From Vasconcelosia minhoensis LEGE 07310 (lineage in GTDB: Bacteria > Cyanobacteriota > Cyanobacteriia > Phormidesmidales > Phormidesmidaceae), in contig NZ_JADEXG010000045.1 of NCBI RefSeq assembly GCF_015207255.1, positions 1-45,345 on the forward strand: 45,345 nucleotides of DNA, read 5' to 3'. Shown one piece after another: positions 10,881 to 45,345 of the stretch. Positions within the stretch are counted from its first letter, which is position 1; every line of letters begins with the position of its first letter. The notes beneath the pieces are model-generated. The model was not told the DNA's origin. It searched no databases and saw nothing but the letters and a program-made list of their open reading frames with translations. The position numbers were made by a program, and so were the translations under genes.

Positions 10881-11312
10881 ATGGCTGAGAAGTTGATAAA
10901 CGTTTTGCTGGTTGACGATGACGAAGTCGATGTGATGAATGTAGAGCGGGCGTTTCGGAAAAATCGAATTCAGAACCCGCTGTATGTTGCTGGCAATGGG
11001 CTAGAAGCGCTGACCATGCTACGAGGATACGGCGGTAACCCGCCAGCCGTTCCTAATCAGCGTCGGCTGATCCTCCTCGATCTGAACATGCCCAAGATGA
11101 ACGGGATCGAATTCCTTAAGGCGCTGCGTCAGGATCCGGAACTACAGACAATCCCAGTGATTGTATTAACAACGTCCGATCAAGAGCAGGACAGAATCAA
11201 AGCTTACAATTTCAATGTTGCCGGATATATTCTCAAGCCGGTGACCTTTGCTAAGTTTGCCGATGTCGTATCGGCTTTGAACCAGTATTGGACGCTCTGT
11301 GAAATGCTTTAG
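10881..11312 (+). CDS. Single-domain response regulator, Rcp1-like
   Basis: A stand-alone receiver of 143 residues. It has the DDDEVD pocket typical of Rcp1-class regulators, phospho-acceptor Asp in LILLDLNMPKMNG, a Thr switch in IVLTTSD and Lys in YILKPV. The long loop before the phosphorylation strand (GGNPPAVPNQRR) is also typical of this class, which pairs with phytochrome-like kinases. With no output domain it likely acts by protein contact or phosphotransfer. The receiver-kinase hybrid starts 23 bp downstream, so the two are probably co-transcribed. Confidence 0.92.
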   Translation: MAEKLINVLLVDDDEVDVMNVERAFRKNRIQNPLYVAGNGLEALTMLRGYGGNPPAVPNQRRLILLDLNMPKMNGIEFLKALRQDPELQTIPVIVLTTSDQEQDRIKAYNFNVAGYILKPVTFAKFADVVSALNQYWTLCEML

Positions 11313-11334
11313 AGCTCCATCTGACTGATAATTT

Positions 11335-12624
11335 ATGGATGATTCTTTAGCGCTCCTGATCATAGACGACGATGAAGTTGATCGGATGGCGGTTCATCGA
11401 GTCTTAGACAAAACCGAGCTGACCTTTTCGCTAGCTGAAGCCACTAGCGCTGAGGTCGCTTTAGAGCTAACCCTAGATCAGTTTGACTGTATTCTTTTGG
11501 ACTATCGCCTGCCTGACCAGGATGGGCTAGCGCTGGTCAAGCGGCTGCGCGATACCGGCAGCAAAGTGCCGCTGATCGTCCTGACCGGCCACGGGGATGA
11601 GCAAATTGCCGTCGAGCTGATGAAGGCTGGGGCCTCGGACTATCTTTCCAAATCCAAACTGTCGCCCGAGATCTTGCAGCACATGGTGCTCAATGCCATT
11701 CTGGTTTATCGGGCCGACCAGCTGGTGCACCGGGCCGACCAGCGAGTGGCCCTAGCGAATCAGCGGCTGCGGGAAAACAATGAGCTGCTGAAGCGTCAAA
11801 ACCGAGAGCTAGAGCAGCAGCGGCAGCAGATCCAGCGGCAAAACCTCCAGCTGATTGAGGTCTCGCGCCTCAAAACAGAATTCTTGGCAACCATGTCCCA
11901 CGAATTGAGAACGCCGTTAAATGCAATTATTGGGTTTTCGCAAATTTTGATGCGGCAGACCAAGGGACAGCTCAGCGACTACCAGCAAGATATGGTCGGT
12001 CGGATACTCATGAATGGCAAAAATCTGCTAGCCCTAATCAACGATGTTCTCGACCTATCCAAGATTGAGGCGGGTCGGCTAGACCTGAAACTGGAAGCGT
12101 TTAACCTCGAACAGCTGATTGCAGCAACCGTTAAGGAGCTGCAGACCCTAGCGGATCAGAAAAAGCTGGCTTTAGAAGTCAAGATTCGGCTCCAGGATCC
12201 GACCGTGCTCAACGACGCCCGGCGGCTGCGCCAGGTATTGACCAATCTGCTCTCTAACGCGATTAAGTTTACCGATCAGGGGTCTGTTTACATTAAAGCA
12301 GAGGATATTTCTCCAGACCGGATTGTAATTTGGGTTAAAGATACCGGCGTAGGAATTGCCCCTGAGCACCTCAGCGCTATCTTCGATGCTTTTCACCAAG
12401 CCGATCAGACGGTGACTCGCCGGCATGGAGGAACAGGCTTAGGGCTGTCAATTACTGACTTGCTGCTGAAGATGATGCAGGGCACTATCCGCGTTAGTAG
12501 CAAAGTCAACCAAGGAACGACCTTTCGGGTAGAGCTACCGCGGCGGGTGACGGTTGAGCCCAATCCAGTGGAGGAGGAAGGTCTCGCGAGCCCAGCTGAG
12601 CCGGTCAGGCCTGCCGTAATTTGA
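11335..12624 (+). CDS. Receiver-histidine kinase hybrid (REC-HisKA-HATPase)
   Basis: 429 residues. The N-terminal receiver (about 5-120; IDDDEVD, phospho-Asp in ILLDYRLPD) has SKSK where most receivers have a KP motif. A Gln/Arg-rich coiled coil follows (about 130-175), then HisKA with the phospho-His in TMSHELRTPLNAI and HATPase with LLSNAIKFTD and GTGLGLSI. A kinase led by a receiver is expected to be controlled by phosphotransfer from an upstream kinase, probably through the neighbouring Rcp1-like protein or the PAS kinase (inference). No membrane segment. Confidence 0.92.
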   Translation: MDDSLALLIIDDDEVDRMAVHRVLDKTELTFSLAEATSAEVALELTLDQFDCILLDYRLPDQDGLALVKRLRDTGSKVPLIVLTGHGDEQIAVELMKAGASDYLSKSKLSPEILQHMVLNAILVYRADQLVHRADQRVALANQRLRENNELLKRQNRELEQQRQQIQRQNLQLIEVSRLKTEFLATMSHELRTPLNAIIGFSQILMRQTKGQLSDYQQDMVGRILMNGKNLLALINDVLDLSKIEAGRLDLKLEAFNLEQLIAATVKELQTLADQKKLALEVKIRLQDPTVLNDARRLRQVLTNLLSNAIKFTDQGSVYIKAEDISPDRIVIWVKDTGVGIAPEHLSAIFDAFHQADQTVTRRHGGTGLGLSITDLLLKMMQGTIRVSSKVNQGTTFRVELPRRVTVEPNPVEEEGLASPAEPVRPAVI

Positions 12625-36949: not shown

Positions 36950-39232
36950 ATGCACAATCGAGTAGAGAGTCAATCCATACAAATTGCGATCGCGTGGTGT
37001 CTGGCCTGGGGTGACCAGGCCCAACCTCAGGTTGAGATTGCGGTGCTGTACCAGATGCGGCAGGCAATGCTGGGTGAGGGGACGATGCCAGAGGAAATGC
37101 GATCGCGCCTTGAGCAGGTGCGTCAGCTGGACGCGCTGGACTATCCCCAAACGCTAGACCAGCTTCAGGCATTGGCCGACCAGTATCCTGAGCTATGGAA
37201 GTCGCGCCTTGGATTGGTCTACGGCGGTGCCACCAAGATCAAGCAGTATGTATTCGAAGCCTCGAAGCTACAGGACATTCGCGGCGCCTCGGCCCTGTTA
37301 GATCGGATTAATCTGATCGACCTGCCCGCCTTTTTTAATCAGCCTCCTGAGTCCCAAGAGTTTGAGCCGCAGTTCAGCAAAACTCGGCAATGGCTTGACC
37401 GGAATAGTCCTGCTCGGGATGACTTCCAGAGTCTGACTGACGTGCTCATTCCCGAGCTAATTATCTATTCCACTGGGGGCAATATCCTGGCTTTTTGCCC
37501 GGCGGCCTACGTTCATGAGCTGTCAAACCTGATTGAAAAGCGCTACACCGAAGAAACGCTTACCGCCAACTCCTGCGCGGTGGGTGAGACCTTTCGGTTT
37601 CTAGAGCTGCGGTTTGGTTTGCTCAGAGATCCGATCGAGGAAACGTTCTGGCTGGGGGGCTATCAGAAGCAGGCGAGCAAAGACCTGGTCAAAGCCTATT
37701 ACGGCGAACCCGAACCCAACCCGGCCGCCCAGTTTGAGCGCCGCAAAAGCTTTAACGAACTGGTGGGCAAACTGGCCACCCGCTTTAATCAGCGCCGCAG
37801 CGGCCACGACCAGCCCGCCGAAGATCGCCCTAGTCGTCGCTATCCGCCCCTGTTCGAGACGCATCCCTACGTCAGACGCGATGGCACAGATAGGCGCTCA
37901 GCCGTTTATCAGGCGAAGAACCTGCCCGGCTCCCCCTGGTTTTCGGAAACGACCGCTAGAAAGCGCCTGGTGGGGCAAAAAGCAAAGCGAGAAGATCAGA
38001 GCGATGCCTGGTATCGCCAGATGGGGTTTGATTGGGAGGCAGGCAATGTCGAAAGCTGGGTGCAGCGGTATGAGAAATTTCTAGCTGACAATCCTGAGCT
38101 CAAAAAGGAATACAACTCAACCGGCGAGACGCTTCAGGAGGCGCGATCGCTGCGGGAAATTGGCAATGCCAGCCAGGGCTTTGTCGCCTATATCTATGCC
38201 GATGGCAACAACATGGGCGGCTACATTCAAAATATTACGACCGCAGATAGCTACCAGCGCTTCAGCCAGGTCGTTTCTGAGGCCACTGAGCAGTCGGTGT
38301 ATCAGGCACTGGCTCGCCACCTCGACCCTCACGAGCTACAAGGTATTAACGATGCAGAGACTCAGAATCGGGATGGCAAGCATGTTCATCCTTTCGAGAT
38401 TCTGACAATTGGCGGCGACGACGTGATGCTGGTGGTGCCTGCAAACAAGGCTCTCGCGATCTCGCAGACCATCAGCGAAGAATTTGAGCAAATTTTACTG
38501 GCGCTGGATCCCTCACTGACCGTTCAGCCAGAGCCTCAGCCTGATCAGCAGACGATCCATCGATATTCTCCCAGCCAGGCTAGGGCATCGACGTGCGAGC
38601 TGAGCATGTCGGCTGGGGTGCTGATCACCGCCGAAAATACGCCCATCTACTATGCCGAAAACCTGACTAATCAGCTGCTCAAATCGGCGAAGAAAAAGGC
38701 TAAGCAGCTGAAGCAGAAGCATCGCTATTCTGGCGGCACCATCGACTTTCTCGTGATGAAGTCGGTTACCATGCTGACCTCTAAGGTGAGTGAATTTAGA
38801 GAATCAGCGTTGGTTTTTGGCAATAGCCCCAAACTCAAGCTATACGGAGCTCCCTATACGCTACACGAGGTTGGCGGCCTGATCGAGACGGCAAAGGCGC
38901 TAAAGGCAGCTGACTTTCCGCGATCGCAGCTTTACCAAATCCGCAGCCTGCTAGAGCGGGGCAAGCATACCGCGATGCTCAACTACCGCTATTTCTGGTC
39001 GCGTTTGGACAATAAAGCAGCTCAGCAACAGCTCAAACGAGCCTTTGAACAAGCCTGGTGCGAAGCCAGAACTAATAACGGCAACCTGGTTCCCTGGATG
39101 TGTGTGCCATCCCAGAAAGGTAAGTCAACTTACGAAACCATCTGGCGCGAGCTGATTGACCTCTATCCCTTCATTGACGAGCCCAAGCGGCAATCTGAGA
39201 CGCCCGCAGCAGCTGAAGCGGAGGTCAGGTAA
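36950..39232 (+). CDS. cas10: Cas10 of a type III-D-like CRISPR system, HD-less
   Basis: The large subunit and signalling enzyme of a type III effector complex; on target RNA it makes cyclic oligoadenylates from ATP. YGGATKIKQYVFEASKLQDI and RGASALLDRINL (about residues 91-122) are typical of Cas10. A first palm with STGGNILAF (174-182) precedes a second palm with YADGNNMGG (416-424) and GGDD at 488-491 (LTIGGDDVMLVV), so the cyclase looks intact. There is no N-terminal HD nuclease domain. The usual zinc ribbon Cys pairs are replaced by RRDGTDRRSAVY and SETTARKR (about 309-339). An in-frame stop lies about 18 bases before the ATG. The stop and the next ATG overlap (TAATG). Confidence 0.93.
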   Translation: MHNRVESQSIQIAIAWCLAWGDQAQPQVEIAVLYQMRQAMLGEGTMPEEMRSRLEQVRQLDALDYPQTLDQLQALADQYPELWKSRLGLVYGGATKIKQYVFEASKLQDIRGASALLDRINLIDLPAFFNQPPESQEFEPQFSKTRQWLDRNSPARDDFQSLTDVLIPELIIYSTGGNILAFCPAAYVHELSNLIEKRYTEETLTANSCAVGETFRFLELRFGLLRDPIEETFWLGGYQKQASKDLVKAYYGEPEPNPAAQFERRKSFNELVGKLATRFNQRRSGHDQPAEDRPSRRYPPLFETHPYVRRDGTDRRSAVYQAKNLPGSPWFSETTARKRLVGQKAKREDQSDAWYRQMGFDWEAGNVESWVQRYEKFLADNPELKKEYNSTGETLQEARSLREIGNASQGFVAYIYADGNNMGGYIQNITTADSYQRFSQVVSEATEQSVYQALARHLDPHELQGINDAETQNRDGKHVHPFEILTIGGDDVMLVVPANKALAISQTISEEFEQILLALDPSLTVQPEPQPDQQTIHRYSPSQARASTCELSMSAGVLITAENTPIYYAENLTNQLLKSAKKKAKQLKQKHRYSGGTIDFLVMKSVTMLTSKVSEFRESALVFGNSPKLKLYGAPYTLHEVGGLIETAKALKAADFPRSQLYQIRSLLERGKHTAMLNYRYFWSRLDNKAAQQQLKRAFEQAWCEARTNNGNLVPWMCVPSQKGKSTYETIWRELIDLYPFIDEPKRQSETPAAAEAEVR

Positions 39233-39954
39233 TGGTGCAGCTGCGCGATCTGCTTCAAACCACAGGCGACTCTATCGCACTCACCGCTCGGGTTGACAGT
39301 GCGCTGTGCGTAGGCGCAGGCGGCTCGTCGGGCTCGCTAGCGGATAAGCCGATTATCCGAACGGCTAGCGGCCAGCTGCTGATTCCCGGCTCTCAGCTAA
39401 AGGGCCGCTTACGCCACGAATGCGAAAAGCTGGCGCGGGGACTGAGCTGGCCCATCTGCGGCGCTCCAGCACCTGAGACCATGTGCCCCCAAATCGGGCT
39501 CAGCAATTCTGACTTTCAGCGTCGGGGCTACAATATCGGCAGGCAGTTTGCCGACGGTCGCCAGCAGTACCACTGTCTGACCTGCCAGATGTTTGGCAAT
39601 CCGGCTCTGCCGTCTCGGGTGATGGTAGACGATCTGATTTGCGACATTGAGCCAGATACCCTACCCGAGGTGCTGCGCCCCGGCGTTACGATTAACCGCC
39701 GCCGCCAGACAGCCGAAGACCAAAAGCTCTATTTTTTAGAAACGTCTCCGGTCAACGTAGCGCTTCCCTTCACAGGGCAGATTCACTTCGAAGCAGACTG
39801 CCCCGACCATGCCAAAGTTTTAATCCTAGCGGCCTTACAACACATCCATGCCCTGGGCGGAAGCAAGTCAGCCGGGCTGGGCTGGCTGAGGTGGGAATAC
39901 GATCTATTAATAGATGCCCGGTCTTGGGATTTGCTGAAGGCAGAAGATAGCTGA
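39232..39954 (+). CDS. Cas7-type RAMP (Csm3-like)
   Basis: 240 residues; a backbone subunit that binds crRNA and cleaves target RNA. The motif ADKPIIRT has Asp38 where Csm3 has its catalytic Asp, followed by IPGSQLKGRLRHECE. CxxC in CLTCQMFGNP and Cys75/Cys84 fit the zinc site. The Gly-rich loop ALGGSKSAGLGWLR is near the C terminus. It overlaps cas10 by one base and Csx10 by TGATG, so all three are translationally coupled. Confidence 0.9.
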   Translation: MVQLRDLLQTTGDSIALTARVDSALCVGAGGSSGSLADKPIIRTASGQLLIPGSQLKGRLRHECEKLARGLSWPICGAPAPETMCPQIGLSNSDFQRRGYNIGRQFADGRQQYHCLTCQMFGNPALPSRVMVDDLICDIEPDTLPEVLRPGVTINRRRQTAEDQKLYFLETSPVNVALPFTGQIHFEADCPDHAKVLILAALQHIHALGGSKSAGLGWLRWEYDLLIDARSWDLLKAEDS

Positions 39955-41240
39955 TGAAAGAGATCCTATTGACGATAACAGCGCTTTCTCCCCTGGCGAT
40001 TGGCCGACAAAAACCGGGCGGATCAGTCAGCGAAGCGCAGTCCTACATTCCGGGATCGGTAATTCGGGGCGCGATCGCGGCCCAAATGCTGCGCCAGTCT
40101 AATAGCGGCGACCAGCCCGGCGGCGACTTTGAAACGCTTTTCCTGAGCGAGGATGCTGCTATCTTTAGCAATGCCTATCCTACAGTCAGAGGCCGACAGC
40201 CGTTAGTGCTGCCCGCCACCGCCGTCAGCTCAAAGACCAATCCGGGCTTTCAAACTGAGACAAACTCCAACGGCGGCGTGTTCGATACGCTGATGGATCG
40301 CTTCTGCGCCGAGGGCTATGGGCATCTATACGACCCAAACTGCCCAAGCGATCAGGGCCGAGTGGAGCCCTATGGTGGCTTCTATAGCGTTGAGGATAAG
40401 AAGTATAGGTCTCATTCTGCTGCGACCCGACTACTCACCCGAGTGGGTATCAACCGCAGGCGAGCAACCGCCCAGGAGCAGATGCTTTACAGCATTGAGG
40501 CCCTGAGTGAAACCGTGCGGGTCAAACATAAAAAGGCTGAAGGCGAAGATAACGATGAAGAGACCTACGAGTGGTCGCCATCGAACTTTGGCGGCACCAT
40601 TCGCCTTGCGGATGCAGAACTGGCAGAGCAGCTGAAAAAATATATTGAATCCAGGAATCCGGAATCCGGTATTACCCAACCGAGCAGACTTCGACTAGGG
40701 GGTTCCATATCACGGGGGCTGGGAAAAGTCTCGATTGAAGCCACTATTCAGGATTACCAATCTAATGCTGCGTCGAGAATAGCAGCCTTTGATCAAACGC
40801 TGCGCGATCGCTGGGAGACCTGGAAAATTTTTGGCACTCCTGATGTTCCTTTAGCGAAAAACCGCACCTTTTTTACCATTGGTTTAACCTCAGACGCTAT
40901 CCTCAGCGAGCAGTGGCGACGCACAACCGTGATTTCGCCAGAGATGCTTTGTCAGATGGCCGGGGTCAGCGATTCTGGCTTAGAGCTTCATGCTTCCTAC
41001 AGCAGCTACGACCATCGCTCTGGCTGGAATGCGGCTTGGGGGCTGATGAAAGATGTAGAGCTGGTGACTAAGATGGGTAGCGTATTTCTGTTCAGTATTC
41101 CGAAGGAGCAAGAAAATGTCTGGATCAGTAAGCTGGCTAAGGTGGAGCGGCAGGGCATTGGCGATCGCACCAGCGAAGGCTTCGGGCAAGTCAGGATTTG
41201 CGACGAGTTTCATCAGATCAGGCGGGAGGCGGCAAAATGA
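39954..41240 (+). CDS. csx10: Csx10-family RAMP (Cas5-like, type III-D)
   Basis: 428 residues. The opening MKEILLTITALSPLAIG and the YIPGSVIRGAIAAQML segment are typical of the Csx10 family, the Cas5-like subunit found in type III-D loci. VSSKTNPGFQTE followed by HLYDPNCPSD and a GGFYSV segment are in the middle; LRLGGSISRGLGKVSIEA is a RAMP Gly-rich loop. It probably holds the crRNA 5' tag. The last codons overlap the next gene (ATGA). Confidence 0.85.
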   Translation: MKEILLTITALSPLAIGRQKPGGSVSEAQSYIPGSVIRGAIAAQMLRQSNSGDQPGGDFETLFLSEDAAIFSNAYPTVRGRQPLVLPATAVSSKTNPGFQTETNSNGGVFDTLMDRFCAEGYGHLYDPNCPSDQGRVEPYGGFYSVEDKKYRSHSAATRLLTRVGINRRRATAQEQMLYSIEALSETVRVKHKKAEGEDNDEETYEWSPSNFGGTIRLADAELAEQLKKYIESRNPESGITQPSRLRLGGSISRGLGKVSIEATIQDYQSNAASRIAAFDQTLRDRWETWKIFGTPDVPLAKNRTFFTIGLTSDAILSEQWRRTTVISPEMLCQMAGVSDSGLELHASYSSYDHRSGWNAAWGLMKDVELVTKMGSVFLFSIPKEQENVWISKLAKVERQGIGDRTSEGFGQVRICDEFHQIRREAAK

Positions 41241-41794
41241 CTGATAATCCGGCTATCAACCTAGAAGAGCAGCTTCTGCTGAGAATCAACCGAGAAATGG
41301 GTATTCAGCTCGATGCTGTCATCAAAAAAGTTCAAGATTTAGCGAAGAAATTTTCAATTGATTCAGACCAGGAAAAATCGCCATTCAAAAATGTTCTTTC
41401 TGCCGCAACTGAGAACTATACATCCCTTGAGGTCATCAAAAACTTTATCCGCTATCAAGCAGGTCGTCAGCCTAGCAATATTTGGAAGAAACAAGGATTT
41501 GCCAAAGCATTAGTCCAAGACATTGATGGACTATCAAATGACGTCAATGATATTTTAGATCGCATTTCTAAAAAGCTTGATGAGGATCATCCCTTGGCCA
41601 AACATATCGTCGATAATCGCGATTCAATCTCGCGGTCTCTCCATTTACAGCTAACGCAGCTCTATCTTGGATATCTTAGCCGTGAACATACAGCTCGGCT
41701 TGGGGAAGAATCGAATAACTCTCATTCAAATAGCGCTTCAACTGCAGAAAAACCGAAAACCAATCGGCCAAATCGTAACCCAAACAGAGAATAG
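41237..41794 (+). CDS. Probable small subunit (Cas11/Csm2-like) of the III-D complex
   Basis: 185 residues from ATG 41237, which overlaps the Csx10 stop (ATGA). Predicted all-helical with a polar Asn/Ser/Pro tail. NYTSLEVIKNFIRYQAGRQ and FAKALVQDIDGL resemble parts of Csm2-like small subunits. Identity is inferred from size, helicity and position. Base composition is visibly AT-richer than cas10 and cas7, as in the next gene, so this part may have been acquired separately. Confidence 0.65.
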   Translation: MTDNPAINLEEQLLLRINREMGIQLDAVIKKVQDLAKKFSIDSDQEKSPFKNVLSAATENYTSLEVIKNFIRYQAGRQPSNIWKKQGFAKALVQDIDGLSNDVNDILDRISKKLDEDHPLAKHIVDNRDSISRSLHLQLTQLYLGYLSREHTARLGEESNNSHSNSASTAEKPKTNRPNRNPNRE

Positions 41795-41855: not shown

Positions 41856-42422
41856 ATGTCCCCAACTCAGTCTTCCCTCAAACTGTCCCTTGAAAAGTTT
41901 TTGGAGCTTCCTGAAACGAAGCCTGCCAGCGAGTATATCAATGGTCAAATTTATCCAAAGCCCATGCCCAAAGGGAAACATAGCCGTCTGCAAACCTACC
42001 TAGCGGCTGAGATTAACCGGGTCAGCGAATCTCAACAGCTTGCCTCTGCTTTTACTGAACTGCGTTGCACATTTGGAGGCCGGTCGGTTGTTCCCGATAT
42101 TGCTGCCTTTTCTTGGCAGCGCATTCCAATAGATACAGCAGGGGAGATTGAAAATACATTTAACATTCCTCCTGATTGGACAATTGAAATACTGTCTCCA
42201 GAACAGAGCTCAGTCCGCGTTATCGACAATATTCTATTTTGCTTAAACCACGGTACGGAGCTTGGATGGTTGATTGATCCACAAGAGCGACTCGTCGTTA
42301 TTTTTCGACCTGGGAAACAACCTGAAATTAGACAGGACGAAGATGAGCTGAGCGTTTTAAGTTTACTCAGCAATTTCCAAATATCAGTTTCAGTGATCTT
42401 TGGCTGGCTCAGTCTAACCTAA
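41856..42422 (+). CDS. Uma2-family (DUF820) PD-(D/E)XK-like protein
   Basis: 188 residues. LSLEKFLELPETKPASEYIN is the usual start, VVPDIAAF carries the PD, and DWTIEILSPEQSS the Glu. The Lys expected some 10 residues on (...K...Y) is not seen; the sequence there is VIDNILFCLNHG, so catalytic activity is uncertain, though a cyanobacterial subset shares this form. GWLIDPQERLVVIF ends the fold. It lies in the CRISPR operon 61 bp after the small subunit and 36 bp before the CARF gene. AT-rich like the small subunit. It may be a hitch-hiker. Confidence 0.85.
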   Translation: MSPTQSSLKLSLEKFLELPETKPASEYINGQIYPKPMPKGKHSRLQTYLAAEINRVSESQQLASAFTELRCTFGGRSVVPDIAAFSWQRIPIDTAGEIENTFNIPPDWTIEILSPEQSSVRVIDNILFCLNHGTELGWLIDPQERLVVIFRPGKQPEIRQDEDELSVLSLLSNFQISVSVIFGWLSLT

Positions 42423-42458: not shown

Positions 42459-43598
42459 ATGACTCGAACTGTCTTAGTATCTACCGTTGGAACTAGCCTT
42501 CTGACGAATCAGATTAACCGCGCTGAGGCCGCTGAGAAAGATTGGTACGGCAGGCTCAGGGATGCGGCCAATCTGGCACCTGACCAAACGCCTGAAGCGG
42601 TATTGGCGATCATTGACACGCTGAAAAGCAGAGCGAGTCAAAAGCTGGTTCAGAGCTCAGTTGCTCAAATCCGGGCGGCCAGCGCAGAGCTAAATGGGGT
42701 GTATGGCTATTATCAAGAACAGCTCCAGCAGGGTAGTCAAGACATGAATCTGCTGATTGCTACCGATACGGCTCAGGGACAGGAGGCGGCTAACCTGGTT
42801 AAAGACTTTCTTGAACAGCAGGGGATCAATACGCAGATTATTATGCCAAAGGGGTTCTCCACCGAGAATACAGAAAAATTCACAGAGGGCATCGACCAGC
42901 TGATCAGCCGATTTGAGAGCGAGCTGCCGGGCTATAAAGAAAGCGGCTATCAGGTATGCTTTAACCTGGTAGGCAGCTTCAAGAGCCTCCAAGGCTATTT
43001 GAACACCATTGGCATGTTCTACGCGGATGAGATTATCTATATCTTTGAAGGACAGGGCTCTGAGGTGATTAAAATCCCTAGGCTGCCGATTGCGATTGAT
43101 CAGTCGGCTATCGAGCCCTTTGCCGTCCAGTTTGCGCTGATGGAGGCCGGTTTCGATGCGGAGCGAGCCGAGCTTGAAGGTATCCAAGAGGCGCTAATCT
43201 ATCCAATAGAAAATGACGTAACGCTTTCTGAATGGGGGAAGCTGATTTGGAAGCAGGCGAAAAAAGAGTCGCTCTCCGGCAGCCTGTTGGGATTTCCCTA
43301 TCTGAAGTATGAAAGCTCCTTTATTCAAGATTATAAGACGCAAGCGAAGCAGGCCGAGCGGGTGAAGCTGCAGGAGACGCTAGCCAGAGTATCGGGCCTG
43401 CTCATAGAGAGCAATGGTAGTTTAGCGGCCCTTAGAAAAGACGGCGGCATTCAGTACAAGGACTACCGAAATGCAGATGTGGGCCATTTTAGGGTTTCGC
43501 TTGAGCTACGAGTGAGCTGTCTGATCGAAAATGGGCTGCTGTCTCTGAGGCGCTACGGCACCCATGACCACGTAGAACGCAGTGAAGGAGTTCGATAG
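42459..43598 (+). CDS. CARF-RelE fusion: predicted cOA-activated mRNA interferase
   Basis: 379 residues. The N-terminal ~210 residues are a CARF domain of the APE2256/TIGR02619 type: VLVSTVGTSLLTNQ (6-19), LLIATDTAQGQEAA (98-111), FNLVGSFKSLQGY (168-180). CARF domains bind cyclic oligoadenylates made by Cas10. The C-terminal ~90 residues look like a RelE/YafQ toxin: SFIQDYKTQAKQ (287-298), KLQETLARVSGLL, GHFRVSLELRVSC and the terminal LRRYGTHDHVE (363-373). The same fusion is known in Cami1-type effectors, ribosome-dependent RNases. The HEPN domain of Csm6 is absent. The catalytic residues of the RelE part cannot be fixed by eye. Confidence 0.8.
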   Translation: MTRTVLVSTVGTSLLTNQINRAEAAEKDWYGRLRDAANLAPDQTPEAVLAIIDTLKSRASQKLVQSSVAQIRAASAELNGVYGYYQEQLQQGSQDMNLLIATDTAQGQEAANLVKDFLEQQGINTQIIMPKGFSTENTEKFTEGIDQLISRFESELPGYKESGYQVCFNLVGSFKSLQGYLNTIGMFYADEIIYIFEGQGSEVIKIPRLPIAIDQSAIEPFAVQFALMEAGFDAERAELEGIQEALIYPIENDVTLSEWGKLIWKQAKKESLSGSLLGFPYLKYESSFIQDYKTQAKQAERVKLQETLARVSGLLIESNGSLAALRKDGGIQYKDYRNADVGHFRVSLELRVSCLIENGLLSLRRYGTHDHVERSEGVR

Positions 43599-43610
43599 GG
43601 GGAGCACATT

Positions 43611-44474
43611 ATGTTTGATATTTTCAAAAATCGTCTGGAGCTGAGCGGCACCTTAACCACAGTGACGGCCCTTCATATTTCGCAGGGCCGCTCGACCGAG
43701 CCGATTGGGTCTGACCTACCGGTAGTGAAAGACTCGCTGGGCCAGCCGCTGATTCCAGGGGCGAGCTTTAAGGGGGCAATGCGATCGCGATTAGAAAGCT
43801 TCCTACGCGGTATAGACCTATCCTTAGCTAGAGATCCGGCTGAGCTGGTCAGTACCCACATGAGTAACCAGGTGAAGTCGCTCAAAGAGGCTCATAAAAA
43901 TAACGATACTGATCTAACTGAGGCGCTAAATAAATTAACTGATGTAGCCTCCAGCGTGTTTGGAACCCCGTGGCAGGCCAGCAAATTTCAGATTCGCGAT
44001 TTGACCATACTGCCAGACACCTGGTTTGGTCAGTATCAGGAGCGCGACGGCGTCTCCATCGAGCGCGATACCGAAACGGCTGCTAAAAGGAAGCTCTATG
44101 ACTTTCAGGTGGTACCGGCGGGGACGCCGTTTGAGTTTAGAGCCGTGGTTGAGAATGCCAAAGATTGGGAGCTGGGCCTGCTTGCGATCGGGCTGCATCA
44201 GTTTGAGGCGGAGCAGATTCCCCTGGGGGGCGGTCGGTCGAGGGGCTTAGGCGTGGTCAAACTCGATATTACAGATGCTTGGTGGGTAGACTATCCGGAC
44301 GAGCAGCCCGAGGAGCTTTTGACCTATCTTCAGCGCCTGATCAATGGCGAAAAGGATCATTATAAGCTTCAGCCAGAAACGTTTAATGAGTATAAGCAAG
44401 ACTGGAGTAAGGCACTAATTGACCATCTGAGGGAGAGAATTCAGTCTTCGACAGCTGACGTAGTCGGTGGCTGA
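43611..44474 (+). CDS. Second Cas7-type RAMP (Csm3/Csx7-like)
   Basis: 287 residues. HISQGRSTEPIGSDLPVVKD has Asp35 in the position of the Csm3 catalytic Asp, then IPGASFKGAMRSRLES and the Gly-rich loop PLGGGRSRGLGVVKLD. An insertion of about 55 residues (KSLKEAHKNNDTDLTEALNK) sits where the thumb usually is. It starts 12 bp after the CARF-RelE stop with a GGAG site. Type III-D complexes use several different Cas7 subunits, so this is a second backbone subunit rather than a duplicate. Confidence 0.88.
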   Translation: MFDIFKNRLELSGTLTTVTALHISQGRSTEPIGSDLPVVKDSLGQPLIPGASFKGAMRSRLESFLRGIDLSLARDPAELVSTHMSNQVKSLKEAHKNNDTDLTEALNKLTDVASSVFGTPWQASKFQIRDLTILPDTWFGQYQERDGVSIERDTETAAKRKLYDFQVVPAGTPFEFRAVVENAKDWELGLLAIGLHQFEAEQIPLGGGRSRGLGVVKLDITDAWWVDYPDEQPEELLTYLQRLINGEKDHYKLQPETFNEYKQDWSKALIDHLRERIQSSTADVVGG

Positions 44475-44513: not shown

Positions 44514-45143
44514 ATGCCTTTTAGCGTTTTTAAGAACCTGGGCGCAACTCTAAAAGAGTTTCAGGTTGTCTATGCCGAAGCTAATTTCATACAAGAGCTG
44601 CCCTTTGGGGTGTCAGACTACTTTCGGCAAGACCTTGATCTGATGATGAGTGAGGCTGTGGTGGACAATTCAGAGTTTGCAATCTGTGAAAACCTGGTCT
44701 ACCCGATTCTCAAAGAGGTGTGGAAGCAGTATCGCAGCAAGTTTGTCCTCTGGAGCCACGAGTTTTTGAATCAGGATGCTCAGCTGTCGGGTTATCCAGA
44801 ATATATCCTGGCTCGGCGATCGCCCCTGGGTAAGGTCGTCTTTGACAAACCCTACTTTCTGCTGGTGGAAGCGAAGCAGGACAATTTTGATGGCGGGTGG
44901 GGTCAGTGCCTGGCGGAGATGGTGGCAGCGCAGCGGCTAAATGAAGAGACTGACCTGGTGATTTATGGCATTGTCTCCAATGGCGATGTCTGGCAGTTTG
45001 GCAAACTGGAGAAACAGAGGTTTACTCAAAACAGAACTTTTTACTCGATTCAGGCTCTAGACCAGCTCTTTGCGGTCGTCAACTATATCTTTCAGCAGTG
45101 TGAAACCCAGCTTGACCAAAGACTTGCAGCCTCAGCCCTATAA
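44514..45143 (+). CDS. Putative PD-(D/E)XK-fold protein of unknown function
   Basis: 209 residues. VFDKPYFLLVEAKQDNF followed by GWGQCLAEMVAAQRL is the D...ExK...Q layout of restriction-type nuclease folds. GIVSNGDVWQFGKLE resembles a recognisable strand at the end of such domains. I do not know a named family; the form is common in cyanobacterial hypothetical proteins. Starts 39 bp after the second Cas7 and is probably in the operon. Function inferred only from the motif layout. Confidence 0.7.
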   Translation: MPFSVFKNLGATLKEFQVVYAEANFIQELPFGVSDYFRQDLDLMMSEAVVDNSEFAICENLVYPILKEVWKQYRSKFVLWSHEFLNQDAQLSGYPEYILARRSPLGKVVFDKPYFLLVEAKQDNFDGGWGQCLAEMVAAQRLNEETDLVIYGIVSNGDVWQFGKLEKQRFTQNRTFYSIQALDQLFAVVNYIFQQCETQLDQRLAASAL

Positions 45144-45267
45144 TTTTTTGACCTATGCATAAGCGACTTGTTAACCATTGCACCATTGACCTCACCCTGT
45201 CTCCCTGTGGGCCAATTTTATACTCTAGACGCCTGATATTTGGACTTTCTTAAAGGACTGAAAATTC

Positions 45268-45345
45268 ATGGTCAACAAAGTTTCTAGCGATGCTTTGTGG
45301 GTCGTATTGGCCTGCTCAATACAAGTGTTAATCGCGTCCTTGAAC
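45268..45345 (+). CDS. Possible next gene, cut by the window edge
   Basis: An open frame of 26 codons starting MVNKVSSDALWVVLACSIQV and running off the right edge without a stop. A hydrophobic stretch begins at residue 10. A weak AAAGGA site lies some 12 bases before the ATG. It could be another gene of the CRISPR operon or unrelated; too short to name. 45144-45267 shows no gene and no CRISPR repeat. Confidence 0.35.
   Translation, partial: MVNKVSSDALWVVLACSIQVLIASLN

What the first reader, a model, noticed from the sequence alone, without database searches (positions are those of the whole stretch)
42459..43598. CARF-RelE fusion effector embedded in a type III-D operon
The protein joins a cyclic-oligoadenylate sensor domain (STVGTSLL, TDTAQGQ, LVGSFKS) to a C-terminal RelE/YafQ-like toxin (FIQDYK, RYGTHD). 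Known type III ancillaries are mostly HEPN RNases (Csm6/Csx1); the CARF-RelE class (Cami1) cleaves ribosome-bound mRNA. Here it lies between complex subunits, not beside them, and Cas10 keeps GGDD, so a signal-to-toxin path looks complete. It is the strongest candidate for an unusual system in this window.
Basis: partly seen in the sequence, partly recalled or inferred. Interest (0 to 1): 0.75.

Follow-up and report, generated by a model that had tools for sequence, protein, structure and literature searches.

The report
Cami1-type CARF-RelE effector, type III-D CRISPR
This cyanobacterial gene most likely encodes a switchable toxin that a CRISPR defence system turns on to stop protein synthesis during infection; it belongs to a known family, but its relatives seem to swap the toxin half of the protein as a unit.

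Summary
Window 42459-43598 (+) encodes a 379-aa CARF, winged-helix, RelE-fold protein inside a type III-D operon. PADLOC's CARF7--CARF_RelE model covers residues 3-371 at 7e-137; the model (pLDDT 94.5) matches solved Cami1 over its whole length, and its C-terminal domain matches RelE-family toxins, YafQ best.

It is ordinary: Cami1 is in 135 of 1113 published type III loci, and purified SyCsm6, a relative, is a ring nuclease. The place between complex subunits is usual: 36 of 41 csx10-bearing loci among 80 fetched.

Two corrections. A third cas7 gene is interrupted at the contig end, so the path may be broken here. Three ring-nuclease residues are kept in 78 of 78 rows, so the protein is probably self-limiting.

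Unexpected: RelE domains appear to be exchanged as cassettes between CARF sensors. Nineteen rows sharing a RelE type are rejected as a clade on the CARF tree (p 4e-6) but not on the RelE tree (p 0.41); one locus pair shows a breakpoint on each side of the RelE part.

The parts
42459..43598 (+). CARF7-RelE (Cami1-type) effector, 379 aa: CARF 1-210, winged-helix-like 219-273, RelE/YafQ-like fold 280-379
42495..42497 (+). S13 of the CARF domain (equivalent of SyCsm6 S12), 78 of 78 rows
42687..42689 (+). E77 (equivalent of SyCsm6 E70), 78 of 78 rows
42981..42983 (+). K175 (equivalent of SyCsm6 K167, whose alanine variant loses cA4 cleavage), 78 of 78 rows
43563..43565 (+). H369, at the place of the YafQ proposed general acid H87; H in 57 and E in 16 of 78 rows
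36950..39232 (+). Cas10, GGDD kept, no HD-domain model among the matches listed
39232..39954 (+). Cas7-type RAMP (Csx7/Csm3-like), first copy
   Evidence: TIGR02581 2e-24, below its cut-off; PDLC01442 8e-34
39954..41240 (+). Csx10 (Cas5 of type III-D), subtype marker
   Evidence: TIGR02674 2e-130
41240..41794 (+). Csm2-like small subunit (Cas11)
   Evidence: PDLC01011 1e-32; an upstream start at 41198 is possible
41856..42422 (+). Uma2-family protein between cas11 and the effector gene
   Evidence: PF05685 5e-36
43611..44474 (+). Cas7 (Csx7), second copy, 12 bases after the effector gene
   Evidence: TIGR02581 3e-66
44514..45143 (+). PD-DExK CRISPR-associated protein
   Evidence: PDLC01472 1e-49
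45155..45223 (+). first 23 codons of a third cas7 gene, 74% identical to a relative's; interrupted after this point
45219..45345 (.). end of a repeated (mobile-element-like) sequence; 127-130 bases, 99-100% identical, at seven other places in the assembly

Best explanation
It is a Cami1-type effector of a type III-D CRISPR system. When the Cas10 complex binds target RNA, the GGDD cyclase makes cyclic tetra-adenylate. The CARF dimer binds it, the winged-helix linker passes on the change, and the YafQ/RelE-fold domain cuts mRNA in the ribosomal A site, arresting growth. The CARF site then cleaves the cA4, so the effector switches itself off. Shown here: domain layout, fold, operon context and the conserved ring-nuclease residues. 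Inferred from Cami1 and SyCsm6: activator, ribosome dependence, cA4 cleavage. Whether the path runs in this genome is doubtful, because a third cas7 gene is interrupted in the assembly.
For: PADLOC CARF7--CARF_RelE 7e-137 across 3-371. Whole-length structural match to cA4-bound Cami1 on the 70S ribosome: Foldseek E 7e-18; VIA Z 19.6, 5.9 A over 328 residues, model 4-379. RelE domain alone: YafQ Z 11.2, 2.3-2.4 A over 85-86 residues. Profile alignment of residues 2-368 with SyCsm6 (probability 100, E 7e-49); SyCsm6 cleaves cA4 and its K167A variant does not (PMC9676260, sections 6 and 7). S13, E77, K175 in 78 of 78 rows. Cas10 with GGDD in the same operon. Published: Cami1 is dimeric, activated by cA4 and cuts mRNA in the A site (PMC11229360, passages) and has ring-nuclease activity (PMC12409355, passage).
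Against: SyCsm6 showed no RNase activity on total RNA in vitro; the sections read mention no added ribosomes. Of the YafQ catalytic residues H50, H63, D67 and H87, only H87 has a counterpart, in a low-confidence sequence alignment (hhalign E 0.16, probability 0.4%), and Cami1's own RelE domain matches less well (Z 7.9) than YafQ does. H369 is E in 16 and neither H nor E in 5 of 78 rows. The sequence link between the window's C-terminal domain and any RelE family is weak on its own. The third cas7 gene is interrupted.
Confidence: 0.78

Rival explanations
1. Mainly a ring nuclease: the CARF site removes cA4 and the RelE domain is weak or inactive, so the protein is an off-switch for another effector such as the CARF8 membrane protein encoded further on.
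For: SyCsm6 cleaves cA4 but not total RNA; S13, E77, K175 invariant; NCBIfam ring-nuclease model NF040951 matches 5-243 at 6e-18, though far below its cut-off; a CARF8--CARF_TM protein lies on contig C49.
Against: The RelE domain has a confidently predicted fold and conserved F344 (73), R351 (77), C354 (76) and H343 (71 of 78 rows); a dead domain should decay, yet 77 of the 80 loci held a full-length ORF (these 80 are the best of 116, so the count leans towards intact ones).
Confidence: 0.15
2. The C-terminal domain has the RelE-superfamily fold but another target, as ParE does (gyrase; recalled), so the toxin does not act on ribosomes.
For: RelE and ParE folds are alike: ParE chains also appear in the list, such as 8c24 at Z 8.7, tied with ribosome-bound RelE (8.8) and HigB (8.3-9.0), and a chain titled YoeB/ParE at 10.1; the YafQ catalytic set is mostly not seen.
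Against: YafQ leads (Z 11.2), above the chains titled ParE or ParDE alone (8.7 or less); the closest full-length relative of known function, Cami1, acts on the ribosome.
Confidence: 0.07
3. The fusion is idle in this genome, because the third cas7 gene is interrupted and no signal is made.
For: cas7 residues 24-236 not found; eight copies each of the two repeat ends, one of which interrupts the gene.
Against: The effector ORF and the other cas genes seen are open; draft assemblies break at repeats, so the missing piece may lie on a contig that was not kept.
Confidence: 0.3

Closest known systems
Cami1 (PDB 8phb, 8phj; that the source is Allochromatium vinosum is recalled)
   Same: CARF, linker, RelE in one chain; type III association; whole-length structural match
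   Different: About 20-23% identity; the profile alignment with the A. vinosum protein reaches only the CARF and linker region; the RelE domain here is nearer YafQ than Cami1's own; the A. vinosum gene stands beside cmr genes
SyCsm6 (Sll7062, Synechocystis PCC 6803, type III-D)
   Same: CARF7 plus RelE, cyanobacterial III-D operon, same three ring-nuclease residues
   Different: 31.7% identity over 84%; last ORF of its operon, not between subunits; the C-terminal part aligns poorly
Crn1-type ring nucleases (Sis0811, SSO1393)
   Same: CARF plus linker domain, Z 20-21; the Ser and Lys mutated in the Sis0811 entries (S12, K169 in the entry titles) lie in the motifs that align here
   Different: Structures end after the linker; no RelE domain in the aligned chains
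YafQ toxin (E. coli DinJ-YafQ)
   Same: Fold of the C-terminal domain, Z 11.2, 2.4 A over 86 residues; His at the H87 place
   Different: Free toxin held by an antitoxin; H50, H63 and D67 have no clear counterpart

Membership tests
Cami1 / CARF7-RelE | N-terminal CARF domain with oligoadenylate-site motifs | tested here: met
Cami1 / CARF7-RelE | winged-helix linker (recalled as part of Cami1) | tested here: met
   helix-helix-strand-strand-helix at 219-273; alignment with Cami1 spans 4-379
Cami1 / CARF7-RelE | C-terminal RelE-superfamily fold | tested here: met
Cami1 / CARF7-RelE | curated profile of the family | tested here: met
   PDLC01934, 7e-137, residues 3-371
Cami1 / CARF7-RelE | type III cas operon with a GGDD Cas10 | tested here: met
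Cami1 / CARF7-RelE | activation by cA4 | not testable with these tools
   needs protein
Cami1 / CARF7-RelE | A-site mRNA cleavage and capture by the ribosomal stalk (stalk part from a paper title seen in reference lists) | not testable with these tools
   the Science 2023 paper is not held
CARF ring nuclease (intrinsic) | residues S12, E70, K167 of SyCsm6 | tested here: met
   S13, E77, K175 by profile alignment, each 78 of 78 rows
CARF ring nuclease (intrinsic) | cleavage of cA4 | not testable with these tools
   shown for SyCsm6
YafQ toxins | catalytic H50, H63, D67, H87 (PMC6529426, passages) | tested here: inconclusive
   H369 stands at H87; no counterpart seen for the others, but the sequence alignment is poor
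Type III-D CRISPR-Cas | Csx10 (Cas5) with several Cas7, Cas11 and Cas10 | tested here: met

The most novel reading that the evidence does not exclude
The RelE half of these effectors is an exchangeable warhead. Across the family, sequence-distinct RelE subtypes have been swapped repeatedly between CARF sensors by recombination that, in the clearest pair, enters just after the conserved LSxWGxLIW stretch before the RelE domain and leaves at the start of the next cas7 gene, as in polymorphic toxin systems. This would let a cyanobacterial lineage change its toxin while keeping its cA4 sensor, for example to escape phage-borne antitoxins (the driver is a guess).
Probability: 0.72. Interest if true: 0.5.

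Novelty: new member of a known kind. Interest (0 to 1): 0.36.

Why it matters
The gene itself adds a well-supported cyanobacterial Cami1 to a known family and predicts a self-limiting, ribosome-directed effector. The wider gain is the sign that toxin domains are replaced as cassettes inside an effector gene, a finer grain than the module shuffling of type III effectors already in print (PMC12669027, passages). That would point to pressure on the toxin half, and it can be tested directly by swapping domains between related cyanobacterial genes in a laboratory E. coli type III system.

Tried and rejected
Chance or a broken ORF: rejected; 77 of 80 named loci hold a full-length relative (the 80 are the best of 116). 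HEPN effector: no HEPN-labelled model among the matches to this protein; several PADLOC models labelled Csm6 match its CARF part only. Viral carriage: 58 pattern stretches in viral contigs, none a relative. Sequence-only link of the C-terminal domain to PDB toxins: nothing for the window alone; the profile gave YafQ at E 0.13; Pfam YafQ_toxin in 6 of 37 members, best 0.0016, not in the window's own stretch.

That the window's own RelE domain is a swapped one: not shown. On the RelE tree it sits with 12 rows from other phyla by their record titles; joining them is rejected on the CARF tree (p 2e-6), but holding those 12 apart from the window is as good on the RelE tree (p 0.68).

Against the swap reading: controls are not clean. 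Close pairs with a segment at least 25 points below operon-wide identity: 81 of 144 for residues 301-379 of the effector and 0 to 6 for every window of Cas10, Csx7a and Csx10, but 37-38 of 144 for the first two windows of the Cas11 gene next door, 4 to 27 for effector windows within 1-250, and 13 of 137 for the end of Csx7b. A control of N part versus C part within one protein gave 6 of 29 for the effector, 0 of 50 for Csx10, 1 of 40 for Cas10, 0 of 239 for Csx7a, but 66 of 599 for Csx7b. Of 28 pairs with CARF and Csx7b both at 70% or more, 5 have RelE at least 25 points lower. In the clearest pair (L090/L103) the Cas11 gene and the first 200 bases of the effector gene are also only 53-63% identical, so RelE is not the only divergent block there; L103 is a MAG. 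Fast divergence alone could give low RelE identity; the tree conflict and the breakpoints are what it explains badly. The RelE tree rests on 91 columns with many weak forks, the trees are quick searches, and the clade tested was chosen after seeing a tree.

Csx3 ring nuclease in the own genome: no match with one query, which the tool warns shows nothing; by hand count, 27 of the 41 csx10-bearing loci have a Csx3 match in the stretch held. Papers: searches; the listings showed no paper on RelE-domain exchange within Cami1 genes. Passages or sections of six papers were seen (PMC9676260, PMC11229360, PMC11980606, PMC12669027, PMC12409355, PMC6529426), none whole.

Full report
What is there. The ORF 42459-43598 (+) is intact, 379 aa. 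Pfam finds Cas_APE2256 at 73-209 (3e-30), NCBIfam TIGR02619 (5e-11), and PADLOC its CARF7--CARF_RelE family over 3-371 (7e-137).

Operon. Upstream are Cas10 with GGDD (36950-39232), a Csx7-like Cas7, Csx10 (TIGR02674, 2e-130) and a Csm2-like Cas11, then a Uma2-family gene; downstream are a second Csx7 and a PD-DExK protein. Csx10 marks type III-D. No HD-domain model was among the Cas10 matches listed; PMC11229360 (passages seen) reports HD domains in 3% of III-D systems.

Structure. An AlphaFold2 model from 60 sequences (the window and 59 relatives, of 77 full-length ones) has mean pLDDT 94.5. Its best Foldseek match is Cami1 bound to cA4 and the 70S ribosome (8phj, E 7e-18). By VIA, ring nucleases of the Crn1 kind match residues 1-273 at Z 20-21, and Cami1 matches 4-379 at Z 19.6 with 5.9 A over 328 residues. 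The large rmsd would fit domains set at different angles. The C-terminal domain predicted alone from 37 sequences (pLDDT 96.0) matches YafQ at Z 11.2, YoeB at 10.0, ribosome-bound RelE at 8.8 and Cami1's own RelE at 7.9. Sequence-only evidence for this is weak.

Residues. Of 80 fetched relatives, 77 are full length; with the window that makes 78 rows (the partial rows L064, L089 and L113 were dropped). S13, E77 and K175 are in 78 of 78. By profile alignment they stand at S12, E70 and K167 of SyCsm6, which PMC9676260 (sections 6 and 7 and passages seen) ties to cA4 binding and cleavage; cleavage is lost in K167A. In the RelE domain R351 is in 77 of 78, C354 in 76, F344 in 73, H343 in 71 and H369 in 57 (E in 16). 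H369 falls at YafQ H87, the proposed general acid (PMC6529426, passages), by two routes: the structural alignment ends at 374 against 92 (this assumes no gap in the last five residues), and the hhalign sequence alignment, though poor, agrees.

Known or new. PMC11229360 counts Cami1 in 135 of 1113 loci (section seen) and calls it cA4-activated and A-site cutting. PMC12409355 states that Cami1 has ring-nuclease activity (passage). The original Cami1 paper is not held. In the phylum sample, 30 of 386 genomes (own genome included) matched at 1e-5. In the 80 named loci, 41 have a csx10 match in the stretch held, and in 36 of those the gene lies directly between cas11 and the second cas7, with Uma2 allowed in between. 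A further 16 have a match to genes of a Nostoc III-B locus, some on a single hit, and 23 gave neither signal, several on short contigs. So the place inside the operon is typical of this cyanobacterial III-D type.

State of the system in this genome. The contig ends at 45345. At 45155 a third cas7 gene starts (74% identity to a relative over residues 1-23) and is then interrupted by sequence whose last 127-130 bases recur at seven other places. Contig C49 ends in a different 147-base repeat that also has seven further copies. Next to it C49 carries the tail of that cas7 gene, Csx19, a fourth Cas7, Csx21, a CARF8 membrane protein, an 18-repeat CRISPR array and a Cas6. Gene order in relatives makes C157-element-C49 the likely join. 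Residues 24-236 of the cas7 gene were not found at E 0.01. That is a deletion or a lost contig; I cannot tell which.

Unexpected: exchange of the RelE domain. The H/E state of residue 369 needs 9 changes on a tree of residues 1-269 but 2 on a tree of residues 275-364 (73 of 78 rows have H or E). Holding the 19 E or Q rows as one clade costs 633 log units on the CARF tree (p-AU 3.9e-6) and 4.5 on the RelE tree (p 0.41). Calothrix parasitica NIES-267 (L090) and Rivularia sp. MS3 (L103, a MAG) are 84-97% identical in DNA from nt 200 to 800 of the gene, 55-61% from 900 to 1200, and 90-98% again over the next 700 bases, which hold most of the next cas7 gene; their Cas11 genes and the first 200 bases of the effector gene are also divergent, 53-63%. 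The base-level alignment breaks at about nt 827, just after the LSTWGQLIW stretch, and recovers at the cas7 start codon. Three more sets of relatives show a similar dip at lower identity: L056/L061, L078 or L085/L088, and L066/L076. The reverse sign, RelE more alike than CARF by at least 15 points, is seen in 11 of 3003 pairs. Controls, not all clean, are given under Tried and rejected; the neighbouring Cas11 gene is also exchanged or fast-evolving. Module shuffling of type III sensors and effectors and in situ exchange of cas9 are published (PMC12669027, passages); I saw nothing on exchange of the RelE domain inside the gene in my listings.

Verdict. The finding is real and correctly named, but it is a member of a known family in its usual place. 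Most likely it is a cA4-activated, self-limiting, ribosome-directed mRNA interferase. The cassette exchange is the part worth further work.

Noticed in passing
45155-45345 and L133:16890-17042: A repeated element with eight copies of each end in the assembly interrupts the third cas7 gene of the operon; the remaining operon is on contig C49.
   Followed up: yes
L090, L103, L056, L061, L066, L076, L078, L085, L088: RelE domains of CARF-RelE genes seem to be replaced as cassettes between conserved flanks.
   Followed up: partly
L133:13580-14458 (-) and 11150-12472: A CARF8 membrane protein (PDLC01942, 2e-91), a possible second effector, and an 18-repeat CRISPR array in the same genome.
   Followed up: partly
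window 41856-42422: A Uma2 gene sits between cas11 and the effector here; in 6 csx10-bearing relatives a close homologue lies after the effector instead.
   Followed up: no
Cas11/csm2 of the operons compared: Cas11 is also very different in otherwise close operons (37-38 of 144 close pairs at least 25 points low).
   Followed up: no
L118: In a Tolypothrix brevis MAG the effector directly follows a Cas10 match that is split in two; no match to csx7a, csx10 or cas11 was found there.
   Followed up: no
L038:8992-10127: In Synechocystis sp. B12 the CARF and RelE parts are annotated as two separate adjacent genes.
   Followed up: no
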